From positions 1-64,000 of the forward strand of contig VBKJ01000128.1 in the NCBI GenBank assembly GCA_005879795.1: DNA of 64,000 nt, written 5' to 3'. Positions 1,352 to 30,262 of the stretch are shown here, in pieces (position 1 is the stretch's first letter; each line of letters starts with the position of its first letter). Position numbers and translations under genes: made by a program. This DNA comes from Deltaproteobacteria bacterium (lineage in GTDB: Bacteria; Desulfobacterota; Binatia; DP-6). The notes under the pieces were generated by a model, which did no database searches, was not told the DNA's origin, and was given only the letters and a program-made list of their open reading frames with translations.

Positions 1352-1585
1352 TCAGCGGCCGAGCAGCGCCAGCAGCTTCGCCGGGTTGAACCCGATCAGC
1401 ACGTCGCCACCCACTTTGATGGTGGGCGTCGCGCGGCTGCCGAGCGCGATCAGCTCCGCGCGCGCCTCCATATCCGTGGACACGTCCTTGGCGACGAACG
1501 GGATGCCCCTCTGCGATAGAAACTCCATCGCCGTGCGGCAGGGCTGTCAGCCGGGCTGGTGATAGACGACCACCGATGGGATCAT
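1352..1585 (-). CDS. Glutaredoxin-like selenoprotein candidate (UxxC active site, in-frame TGA at codon 13)
   Basis: Small thioredoxin-fold redox protein of 77 residues if the in-frame TGA (minus strand, 1549-1547) is read as selenocysteine. Read through, the protein is MIPSVVVYHQPG-U-QPC-RTAMEFL, then a PFVAKDVS strand, GSRATPTIKVGG with the cis-Pro TPT signature, and VLIGFNPAKLLALLGR. That is the full glutaredoxin/NrdH-like fold, with U exactly where the first Cys of the CxxC motif should be. Codon use stays G/C-biased on both sides of the TGA and there is no frameshift. The family is normally 75-90 residues. A hairpin fitting a bacterial SECIS lies just downstream of the UGA. Read without recoding, only 12 residues would be made. 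No Sec machinery lies in this window, so decoding is inferred. The alternative is a point-mutated pseudogene (TGC or TGT to TGA). Confidence 0.75.
1513..1531 (-). promoter_or_regulatory. Candidate bacterial SECIS stem-loop
   Basis: On the minus strand, 16 to 34 nt after the UGA of the glutaredoxin-like gene, GCGATGGA pairs with TCTATCGC: eight pairs including one G-U, closing a 3-nt GUU loop. A G followed by U in an apical loop some 16-37 nt past the UGA is what is known of bacterial SECIS elements bound by SelB. CCC 4-6 nt after the UGA could pair with GGG 38-40 nt after it to extend the stem. The coding constraint of the glutaredoxin sequence is preserved through the hairpin. SelB binding is inferred from geometry alone. 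Confidence 0.6.
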
Positions 1586-1720: not shown

Positions 1721-2884
1721 ATGAGCTTCGAGCTGTCGGCCGAGGAGCAGCTGATCGTCGAGGCGGTGCGTGAGCTGGCCGCCGGCCCCAACGGCCGCGT
1801 GCACTGGCGCGAGCGCGCGCTCGCCAACACCTTCCCCGAGCGGCTGTGGCAGGCGCTGGCCGAGGCGGGGTACCTGGGCCTCCTCGTGCCGCCGGAGCAC
1901 GGCGGGGCGGGACTCGGTCTCAAGGAGATGGCGGTCCTCATGGAGGCGATGGCCTCCGAGGGCATGGCGCTTCTCCTCATGATCGTCAGCACCGTGATGG
2001 CGACCATCGCGCTCGCCAAGCACGGGAGCCCGGAGCAGAAGCGCCGCTACCTCCCGGGGCTCGCGTGCGGCACGACCCGGTTCTGCTTCGCGATCACCGA
2101 GCCGAACGCCGGCTCGAACAGCTTCCGCCTCGAGACGCTCGCCACCCGCGACGGCGACGGTTACCGCATCCGCGGGCAGAAGTACTTCATCTCGGGGGTC
2201 GAGCAGGCGCAGCACGTGCTCCTCGTGACCCGCAGCACCCCGGCACGCGAGGTGCGCGACAAGCGAGCGGGCCTCTCCCTCTTCATCGTCGACACGGACG
2301 CCCCCGGCTTCTCGAAGCAGGTGCAGGACACGGCGCTCAACGAGACCGAGCGGCAGTGGACGCTCTTCCTGGACGACGTGCGCGTGCCGCGCGCGAACCT
2401 GATCGGCGAGGAGGGCGCGGGACACCGCTACCTCTTCGACCTGCTCAACCCCGAGCGCGTCGCCGGGGCGGCCATCGCGGTCGGCCTCGGCCGCTACGTG
2501 CTCAGGCGCGCCGTCGCCTATGCCAAGGAGCGCAGGGTGTTCGACGCGCCGATCGGCACGCACCAGGGCCTCGCGCACCCGATGGCGCTCGCGGCCACGC
2601 ATCTCGAGCTGGCCGGCGTGATGACCCGCAAGGCCGCCTGGCAGTTCGACCGCGGGGAGACCGCCGGTCCGGAGGCCAACATGGCGAAGATGGCGGCCGC
2701 CGACGCCGGGCTCGAGGCGTGTGACGTCGCCATCCAGGTCCACGGCGGCAACGGCTTCACCCGGGAATTCGAGGTGATCACGTACTGGCCGCTCCTCCGC
2801 CTCATCAAGACCGCGCCGGTGTCGCGGGAGATGATCCTCAACTACATCGGCGAGCACGTGCTGGGGCTGCCGCGGAGCTACTGA
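1721..2884 (+). CDS. Acyl-CoA dehydrogenase
   Basis: FAD-dependent alpha,beta-dehydrogenation of an acyl-CoA, passing electrons to ETF; 387 residues, the usual family length. Order of domains: N-terminal helical domain (1-115, with GYLGLLVPPEHGGAGLG), beta-domain (about 118-225, with CFAITEPNAGSN, the FAD/substrate signature, and KYFISGVEQA), and C-terminal helical domain (235-387, with QVHGGNGFTREFEV). It ends in LGLPRSY, a tail seen in FadE-like members rather than in medium-chain or isovaleryl enzymes, so the substrate is not determined. The ATG at 1721 is chosen because the product begins with the family's MSFELSAEEQ pattern. It follows the carboxylase subunit on the same strand with the small antisense glutaredoxin gene between them. 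Confidence 0.9.
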   Translation: MSFELSAEEQLIVEAVRELAAGPNGRVHWRERALANTFPERLWQALAEAGYLGLLVPPEHGGAGLGLKEMAVLMEAMASEGMALLLMIVSTVMATIALAKHGSPEQKRRYLPGLACGTTRFCFAITEPNAGSNSFRLETLATRDGDGYRIRGQKYFISGVEQAQHVLLVTRSTPAREVRDKRAGLSLFIVDTDAPGFSKQVQDTALNETERQWTLFLDDVRVPRANLIGEEGAGHRYLFDLLNPERVAGAAIAVGLGRYVLRRAVAYAKERRVFDAPIGTHQGLAHPMALAATHLELAGVMTRKAAWQFDRGETAGPEANMAKMAAADAGLEACDVAIQVHGGNGFTREFEVITYWPLLRLIKTAPVSREMILNYIGEHVLGLPRSY

Positions 2885-3096: not shown

Positions 3097-3300
3097 ATGA
3101 CCGGCACCATCAAGCGCATCGTGCGCGACAAGGGGTTCGGCTTCATTACCCCCGATGACGGGTCGGACGACGTGTTCTTCCACCGCTCGCGGCTCGCGCC
3201 GCGGGTCCCGTTCGAGGACCTGCGCGAGGGCGATCAGGTGGTGTTCCAGACGCGACCGGGCGAAAAGGGGCCGCAGGCGTTCGACGTGCGCCTCCGCTGA
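3097..3300 (+). CDS. Cold-shock-domain protein
   Basis: Single OB-fold cold-shock protein of 67 residues, a nucleic-acid chaperone. It carries the RNP1-type KGFGFITPDDG and RNP2-type DVFFHRS motifs, followed by an FEDLREGDQVVF strand. The start MTGTIKRIV matches the family; an upstream in-frame start would add 25 residues with no family counterpart. No good ribosome binding site lies just before the ATG; a GAGGAGGTGA stretch sits about 50 nt upstream. The preceding ~210 bases, after the acyl-CoA dehydrogenase, hold no other gene that I can support. Confidence 0.9.
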   Translation: MTGTIKRIVRDKGFGFITPDDGSDDVFFHRSRLAPRVPFEDLREGDQVVFQTRPGEKGPQAFDVRLR

Positions 3301-29182: not shown

Positions 29183-30262
29183 ATGGCGGAGCTCACGCCC
29201 GAGCGGGTGCGCGAGGCGCTTCGCACCGTCCTCTTCCCGAACTTTCGGCGCGACATCGTGACCCTCGGCATGGTGGGCGAGGACATCGCGATCGCGGGGG
29301 ACACCGTGCGCCTGCACGTGCGCCCGGGGACCGACAAGCCCGAGGCGCTGCAGCAGCTGGCGCACGCGATCGACGCCGCGCTCCGCCGTCTTCCCGGCGT
29401 CGTGCACGTCGACGTGCACTTCGCGCGTGCCGAGGAGGGGAGGGGGCGCGATCCCTTCACCGAGCGCGCGGCGCTGCCCGGCGTGGCGCACATCGTCGCG
29501 GTGGCGAGCGCGAAGGGCGGGGTCGGCAAGTCGACCGTGGCCGTCAACCTGGCGCTCGGGCTGGCGGGCGAGGGACGCCGGCGCGTCGGGCTCGTCGATG
29601 CCGACGTCTACGGTCCGAGCCTGCCCATCATGCTGGGCACCGACGCACGCCCGCGCGTCACACCGGACAAGCGCATCCATCCCCTCGAGCGGTACGGGAT
29701 CAAGCTCATGTCCATGGGCTTCTTCCTCGACGAGCAGTCGCCGGTCATCTGGCGCGGGCCGATCGTCATGGGCGTCGTGCGGCAGTTCCTGCGCGACGTG
29801 GAGTGGGGCGAGCTGGATTTCCTCGTCGTGGACCTCCCGCCGGGGACGGGCGACGCGCCGCTCACGCTGGTCCAGCAGGTGCCGGTCACGGGCGCGGTCA
29901 TCGTGACCACGCCGCAGGACGTGGCGCTCCTCGACACGGGGCGGAGCATGGGGATGTTCCTGCAGGTGAACACACCCGTGCTGGGCGTGGTGGAGAACAT
30001 GAGCGGCTACCTCTGCCCGCGCTGCGGGACGGAGGATCCGATCTTCGGCCGGGGCGGGGCCGAGGCGCTGGCGGCCCGCTTCGGCGTGCCCGTGCTGGCG
30101 CGTATCCCGCTCGTCGCCGCCCTGCGCGAGGGCGGCGATGCCGGGCGCCCGCTGGTCGCCGCCCAGCCGGAGCACCCGGTGAGCCGGCTCTTCGCCGCGC
30201 TCGCGGCGCGGGTGGCCGAGACGGTGGCACCGTCCGGCGCAGCTGCGGCCGCGCCCGCCTGA
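29183..30262 (+). CDS. mrp: Mrp/ApbC (NBP35-like) iron-sulfur cluster carrier ATPase
   Basis: P-loop ATPase that carries [4Fe-4S] clusters to target proteins; 359 residues. An N-terminal MIP18/DUF59-like domain (1-90, with ELTPERVREALRTV) is followed by the deviant Walker A VASAKGGVGKSTVAVNLAL, DADVYGPSLP, the VVDLPPGTGDAPLT switch, and the cluster-binding CxxC in SGYLCPRCGTEDPIFG. It is read divergently from the polyprenyl synthase. MoaA and UDG nearby are Fe-S enzymes and possible clients. Confidence 0.93.
   Translation: MAELTPERVREALRTVLFPNFRRDIVTLGMVGEDIAIAGDTVRLHVRPGTDKPEALQQLAHAIDAALRRLPGVVHVDVHFARAEEGRGRDPFTERAALPGVAHIVAVASAKGGVGKSTVAVNLALGLAGEGRRRVGLVDADVYGPSLPIMLGTDARPRVTPDKRIHPLERYGIKLMSMGFFLDEQSPVIWRGPIVMGVVRQFLRDVEWGELDFLVVDLPPGTGDAPLTLVQQVPVTGAVIVTTPQDVALLDTGRSMGMFLQVNTPVLGVVENMSGYLCPRCGTEDPIFGRGGAEALAARFGVPVLARIPLVAALREGGDAGRPLVAAQPEHPVSRLFAALAARVAETVAPSGAAAAAPA

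What the first reader, a model, noticed from the sequence alone, without database searches (positions are those of the whole stretch)
1352..1585. Glutaredoxin-like protein with selenocysteine (UGA) replacing the first active-site Cys
Reading through a TGA at 1549-1547 (minus) gives an uninterrupted 77-residue glutaredoxin-fold protein with a YHQPG-U-QPC active site, the TPT cis-proline motif and the GFNPAKL helix. The TGA falls at the one position where selenocysteine makes chemical sense. An eight-pair hairpin with a GUU loop sits 16-34 nt after the UGA, where bacterial SECIS elements lie. An ordinary caller would miss the gene or end it after 12 residues. UxxC glutaredoxin/thioredoxin-like selenoproteins are known in Sec-decoding bacteria; this one appears unannotated.
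Basis: partly seen in the sequence, partly recalled or inferred. Interest (0 to 1): 0.88.

Follow-up and report, generated by a model that had tools for sequence, protein, structure and literature searches.

The report
A selenium-containing glutaredoxin read through UGA
An uncultured bacterium carries a small redox gene whose apparent stop codon almost certainly codes for the rare selenium amino acid selenocysteine; it is a real gene that ordinary annotation would miss, but selenium glutaredoxins are already known.

Summary
Window 1352-1585 (-) encodes a 77-residue glutaredoxin-fold protein with an in-frame UGA at codon 13, the first active-site Cys position (YHQPG-U-QPC). Homologues from many phyla keep UGA at this codon (78 of 80 loci in one scan, though that scan favoured Sec forms). 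All carry the same hairpin 16-34 nt after the UGA. It has two strongly covarying base pairs and an invariant G-U at the start of the loop, and it meets every published bacterial SECIS constraint. Cys homologues exist; those compared lack or have damaged the hairpin. The genome has a high-scoring tRNA-Sec. However, in four same-family relatives they form one block with cca and pepA, and the window's assembly breaks off inside pepA just where that block should start, so an assembly gap explains the absence. UxxC Sec-glutaredoxins are a known kind with a characterised example (cGrx1, PDB 7c10). This is a divergent member, below every NCBIfam cut-off, closest to Planctomycetota sequences. Verdict: a genuine new member of a known kind, of moderate interest. 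Electron donor and substrate are unknown.

The parts
1352..1585 (-). Sec-glutaredoxin gene, 77 residues plus TGA stop (1352-1354); start ATG 1583-1585
   Evidence: homologues of the same length starting at the same Met
1547..1549 (-). in-frame UGA read as selenocysteine (residue 13, first active-site position)
   Evidence: TGA conserved at this codon across phyla; TGC/TGT in Cys homologues
1538..1540 (-). codon of the resolving cysteine (Cys16) of the UxxC motif
   Evidence: sequence; invariant in alignment A2
1513..1531 (-). bacterial SECIS hairpin 5'-GCGATGGA-GTT-TCTATCGC-3': 8-bp stem, loop GUU at 1521-1523
   Evidence: model R1 scores 68.1 bits here (E 2.6e-14; next best in the window 11.7 bits) and hits no other place in the genome
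17..1339 (+). carboxyl transferase (acyl-CoA carboxylase beta-subunit type), convergent neighbour, not part of the system
   Evidence: PF01039 E=1.4e-131
1721..2884 (+). acyl-CoA dehydrogenase, divergent neighbour, not part of the system
   Evidence: PF00441/PF02771/PF02770

Best explanation
The gene is a genuine bacterial selenoprotein gene: it encodes a small glutaredoxin-fold thiol-disulfide oxidoreductase with a U-x-x-C active site. Shown by sequence: UGA codon 13 is followed 16-34 nt downstream by a SECIS hairpin of the class bound by SelB, and the genome encodes tRNA-Sec. Inferred: SelB with Sec-tRNA-Sec decodes the UGA. The Sec selenolate attacks a target disulfide or an oxidised enzyme. 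Cys16 then resolves the mixed selenide-sulfide. The resulting Se-S bond is re-reduced by a low-molecular thiol or, perhaps more likely for this subgroup, by a disulfide reductase (thioredoxin-reductase or ferredoxin-thioredoxin-reductase type). selA, selB and selD are expected in the real genome but fall in an assembly gap.
For: UGA at the same codon in all close homologues from relatives and in 78 of 80 loci of a genome-wide scan. Hairpin in all of them: 97.7% of cells paired against 36-71% for slid controls; pairs 20/36 (CG<->AU, 24 double changes) and 23/33 (AU<->UA, 21 double changes); 0 of 500 shuffles as high on cells paired, double-change cells and covariation score. The 3' sides of both covarying pairs are synonymous third positions (Ser TCG/TCT, Leu CTA/CTT), so protein constraint cannot explain them. 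Published bSECIS limits are all met (hairpin -8.9 kcal/mol). Cys homologues lack the hairpin (L026, L028, L063) or have it damaged (L164). The region after the UGA evolves as protein: 157 synonymous and 48 non-synonymous codon differences over 12 close pairs; GC by codon position 0.65/0.48/0.92 in the window gene. tRNA-Sec 81.4 bits, the best of 58 genomes. selB over cut-off in 41 of 58 genomes of the set. Assembly gap supported. Structure model pLDDT 86 with Trx fold, matching Sec-Grx cGrx1 7c10 at TM 0.90-0.95.
Against: selA, selB and selD are not in the held assembly. None of six same-family genomes carries this gene. On the tree the covariation rests on few independent events: 1-4 independent pairs, too few for significance on their own. 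No expression or protein data. The gap argument assumes that gene order in the window genome is that of its relatives.
Confidence: 0.95

Rival explanations
1. Pseudogene or sequencing error: the codon was TGC/TGT and a change or miscall to A made a stop.
For: A Cys codon is one substitution away; draft metagenome-type assembly; one relative (L139) has TCA at this codon.
Against: TGA conserved in dozens of independent assemblies of different phyla; the downstream frame is under purifying selection in the family and uninterrupted here; a position-specific, covarying hairpin follows the TGA.
Confidence: 0.02
2. The gene was once a selenoprotein gene, but this lineage has lost selA/selB/selD (tRNA-Sec a relic), so translation now ends at residue 12.
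For: selA, selB and selD not found; same-family G001 lacks selB and selD and has only a weak tRNA-Sec match (50.8 bits) in a near-complete genome, so loss does occur in the family.
Against: The non-selenium gene cca of the same block is missing too, and a contig ends inside pepA at the block's expected edge; tRNA-Sec has the highest score of the set; reading frame and SECIS are intact.
Confidence: 0.03
3. UGA is read as another amino acid (Trp, Cys or Gly, as in codes 4 or 25, or by a suppressor) rather than Sec.
For: None specific.
Against: UGA is the normal stop of this very gene; a SECIS and a tRNA-Sec are present; the position is the catalytic Cys.
Confidence: 0.005
4. The gene is real, but the contig is mis-binned and belongs to another organism (for example a Planctomycete), so the tRNA-Sec of this genome is not its partner.
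For: Closest homologues are Planctomycetota (60-61%, tree support 98/90); no orthologue in six same-family genomes; 3.9% estimated contamination.
Against: Tetranucleotide profile and GC of the window fit the other contigs of the genome (correlation about 0.87, the same as among those contigs). It would not change what the gene is.
Confidence: 0.07

Closest known systems
cGrx1, the selenoprotein glutaredoxin of Clostridium (Alkaliphilus) oremlandii (PDB 7c10/7c12; PMC7642778; Kim et al. 2011, cited in PMC9312934 and PMC13188914)
   Same: U13-x-x-C16 numbering identical, about 40% identity over 73-74 residues, same length and fold (TM 0.90-0.95), GF[DN] motif before the last helix
   Different: UPHC instead of UQPC; the GSH and MsrA partnership described for cGrx1 is untested here; host phylum differs
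NCBIfam TIGR02196 (YruB-family glutaredoxin-like) and TIGR02194 (NrdH-redoxin)
   Same: best-scoring curated glutaredoxin models, nearly full-length match (67.1 and 48.3 bits); NrdH-like GF[NDR]P motif
   Different: below both cut-offs (88.55 and 85.75); Sec at the first position; no link to a ribonucleotide reductase tested
NCBIfam Uxx-star (seleno)proteins (NF041212, NF041211, NF041114, NF047338)
   Same: glutaredoxin-like proteins with Sec at the first active-site position
   Different: below every cut-off (48.3 of 66 for NF041212); UxxC kept here, whereas the family-1 motif is listed as UxxT (PMC13188914)
Sec-glutaredoxins reported from the Sargasso Sea, Geobacter and Alkaliphilus (PMC1088965, PMC1794560)
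   Same: same selenoprotein family (Grx, COG0695 / PF00462), UxxC
   Different: not compared by sequence here; those reports predate the window's lineage

Membership tests
bacterial selenoprotein | in-frame UGA aligned with conserved Cys of homologues (Sec/Cys pair) | tested here: met
   TGA in Sec forms, TGC/TGT in L026, L028, L063, L164
bacterial selenoprotein | bSECIS: 3-9 nt loop, 4-16 bp upper stem, G in first two loop positions, UGA-to-loop spacing 16-37 nt, MFE <= -7.5 (limits as given in PMC13188914) | tested here: met
   loop GUU (3 nt), 8 bp, G first, spacing 23 nt, -8.9 kcal/mol for the hairpin alone
bacterial selenoprotein | SECIS conserved by compensatory change | tested here: met
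   the number of independent events is small
bacterial selenoprotein | genome encodes tRNA-Sec (selC) | tested here: met
   C162:23266-23356 (-), 81.4 bits, ARAGORN SeC with anticodon TCA
bacterial selenoprotein | genome encodes SelA, SelB, SelD | tested here: inconclusive
   not in the draft, but cca of the same block is missing too and contig C157 ends inside the neighbouring pepA
bacterial selenoprotein | selenium actually in the protein | not testable with these tools
   needs 75Se labelling or mass spectrometry
glutaredoxin family (PF00462) | profile match and Trx/Grx fold with U/CxxC and cis-Pro | tested here: met
   E=1.3e-13, 51.4 bits against a cut-off of 22.9; AF2 pLDDT 86, b-a-b-a-b-b-a; positions 13, 16 and P54 invariant
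glutathione-dependent Grx3 (TIGR02181) | curated cut-off | tested here: not met
   28.5 of 90 bits; GSH use itself not testable
NrdH-redoxin (TIGR02194) | curated cut-off | tested here: not met
   48.3 of 85.75 bits
NCBIfam Uxx-star (NF041212) | curated cut-off | tested here: not met
   48.3 of 66 bits

The most novel reading that the evidence does not exclude
The window protein belongs to a Sec-dominated subfamily of NrdH/YruB-like glutaredoxins spread over many uncultured phyla, in which the SECIS itself dictates the conserved EFLSQ helix motif of the protein. Its electrons come from disulfide reductases (thioredoxin reductase or ferredoxin-thioredoxin reductase, found beside it in Rokubacteria and Tectomicrobia) rather than from glutathione.
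Probability: 0.4. Interest if true: 0.5.

Novelty: new member of a known kind. Interest (0 to 1): 0.36.

Why it matters
It is a clean case of a functional gene hidden behind a recoded stop codon, in a candidate phylum (most likely Binatota) for which the held literature has no paper that mentions selenoproteins. It also shows how an apparently absent SelB can be an assembly gap rather than a contradiction. For the subfamily, gene neighbourhoods give a testable lead on the unknown electron donor of Sec-glutaredoxins.

Tried and rejected
RF00023 (tmRNA) was searched first by mistake for tRNA-Sec; RF01852 was then used. Folding energy of the 45 nt after the UGA is not distinctive in 73% GC DNA, so it is not used as evidence. 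The covariation was also tested on a tree built without the SECIS columns: it nearly always goes the same way, never the opposite way, but only 1-4 independent pairs exist. Synteny of the flanking acyl-CoA dehydrogenase in same-family genomes gave only 31-37% identical matches, so the locus cannot be compared position by position. A donor next to the window gene: no thioredoxin-reductase or FTR homologue in the window, and no FTR homologue in the genome. No sigma-70-type promoter or terminator pattern at the gene, which says little in this lineage.

Full report
Observation. The reverse strand of 1352-1585 reads as a 77-residue protein with one in-frame TGA at codon 13 and a TGA stop. With Cys in place of the TGA it matches Pfam Glutaredoxin (E=1.3e-13). 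Its best solved relative by sequence is 7c10, the cysteine version of the selenoprotein glutaredoxin cGrx1 of Clostridium oremlandii, whose catalytic residue is natively Sec (PMC7642778). The numbering U13-x-x-C16 is identical. The gene lies alone on the minus strand between a carboxyl transferase (17-1339) and an acyl-CoA dehydrogenase (1721-2884), both on the plus strand.

Homologues. In 57 relatives of the window's genome, the closest homologues all have TGA at the same codon: G034, G007 (three copies), G020, G040, G027, G022, G016, G029, G053, G049. Cys forms with TGC occur in two genomes of another family of the class (L026, L028). A scan of 84,980 species genomes, made with the part of the protein after the Sec, gave 80 loci: 78 TGA, one TGT (a Dehalococcoidales MAG) and one TCA. 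This ratio is biased, because the search pattern contained residues written by the SECIS. One relative (G022) is recognisable as OY282457.1, a Candidatus Binatia chromosome, from contig length and position, so the window very probably comes from a member of Binatia (Candidatus Binatota); this is an inference. In a tree of 88 proteins the window sequence joins three Planctomycetota sequences (98/90), with 61% identity at most. No same-family genome has the gene, so transfer or repeated loss is likely.

SECIS. The hairpin at 1531-1513 starts 16 nt after the UGA: eight pairs around a GUU loop. The same hairpin stands at the same place in the Sec homologues, also in the fused forms, and not in the Cys homologues compared. 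Over 64 distinct sequences 97.7% of pair cells are standard pairs, against 36-71% when the partner is slid. Pair 20/36 switches between C-G and A-U, pair 23/33 between A-U and U-A; loop positions G27 and U28 are invariant. The 3' partners are synonymous third positions (TCG/TCT, CTA/CTT), so the protein does not force them. The published limits for bacterial SECIS elements (loop 3-9 nt, stem 4-16 bp, G in the first two loop positions, spacing 16-37 nt, MFE <= -7.5) are all met (hairpin -8.9 kcal/mol). In the window the loop-side codons TTT and CTA are rare (4% of Phe, 0.6% of Leu), and synonymous sampling gives the full stem in 0.3% of cases. A covariance model of the element hits this site alone in the genome (68 bits). 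Caveat: on the tree the covarying pairs changed only a few times independently.

Coding after the UGA. Twelve close pairs of homologues show 157 synonymous against 48 non-synonymous codon differences after the UGA, and the window's post-UGA codons have the GC pattern of a gene of this genome (0.65/0.48/0.92).

Machinery. The genome has a tRNA-Sec (81.4 bits, anticodon UCA), the highest score among 58 genomes. No selB, selA or selD is found: the selB matches are well below its cut-off, and by length and sequence they look like other translation GTPases (EF-Tu, IF-2, LepA, BipA/TypA, EF-G), and there is no selA or selD match. In four same-family genomes the genes lie in one block, pepA-cca-adh-selA-selB-selD (not every gene visible in every contig; identities by Pfam). 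The window's genome lacks cca as well, although tRNA nucleotidyltransferase is normally needed. Its pepA is cut off because contig C157 ends there (match to base 30155 of 30159, residue 354 of 490 of the query). The simplest reading is that the whole block is in an assembly gap. The same may have happened in G007, which has three Sec-glutaredoxin genes but neither selB nor tRNA-Sec in its draft, while in its genus mate G053 the two lie 1.3 kb apart on one contig. Composition does not suggest that the window contig is foreign to the genome.

Function. AlphaFold gives a confident thioredoxin-type fold (pLDDT 86), nearest to BC3987, cGrx1 and NrdH-redoxins. Curated models place it nearest YruB, Uxx-star and NrdH, but below all cut-offs, and far below Grx3. 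In Rokubacteria and Tectomicrobia, whose proteins form the neighbouring clade in the tree (92/81), the catalytic subunit of ferredoxin-thioredoxin reductase (PF02943) lies within 3 kb of the gene in 14 loci, and a thioredoxin reductase gene stands directly upstream in eight of them. A donor of that type is therefore plausible for the subgroup, but no FTR homologue was found in the window's own genome. The catalytic cycle (selenolate attack, resolution by Cys16) is inferred from cGrx1 and the family.

Verdict. The finding is right and its main doubt has a good explanation. It is an unannotated-looking new member of a known selenoprotein family.

Noticed in passing
L029:819-1544(+), L030:979-1692(-), L057:481-1233(-): In three Binatia genomes a Sec-glutaredoxin domain with the same SECIS is fused to a C-terminal domain of about 170 residues; in L030 it weakly matches DinB_2 (E=1.2e-4). 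Possible thiol-transferase fusion.
   Followed up: partly
L059, L060, L061, L062: A second, GrxC-like Sec-glutaredoxin (YSTDYUGFC / YTTDYUGYC) in another Binatia family, with a different hairpin after the UGA (seen in L062).
   Followed up: partly
L089:1947-3625 and 13 further loci (L093, L096, L097, L100-L102, L104, L105, L109, L113, L120, L142, L152): Ferredoxin-thioredoxin reductase catalytic subunit near the Sec-glutaredoxin gene; thioredoxin reductase directly upstream in eight of these loci.
   Followed up: partly
L106, L128, L140 (MerT-like); L106, L140, L124, L056, L154, L123, L121, L156 (ArsR-type): In Methylomirabilota and Binatia homologues an ArsR-type regulator, and in three loci a MerT-like protein, lies near the Sec-glutaredoxin gene, hinting at metal or metalloid stress.
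   Followed up: partly
G007 (L020, L056, L057) and G053 (L054, L074): G007 has three Sec-glutaredoxin genes with intact SECIS but no selB or tRNA-Sec in a draft rated 100% complete; genus mate G053 has both close together on one contig.
   Followed up: partly
L139, Sec codon position: A Binatota homologue with TCA (Ser) at the Sec codon but an intact SECIS hairpin: recent mutation or assembly error.
   Followed up: no
window 3097-3300 (+): Ordinary cold-shock domain protein (PF00313).
   Followed up: yes
G000:C134:54923-55120 (L063): The same genome also has an ordinary Cys (TGC) glutaredoxin-3-like paralogue without the hairpin.
   Followed up: partly
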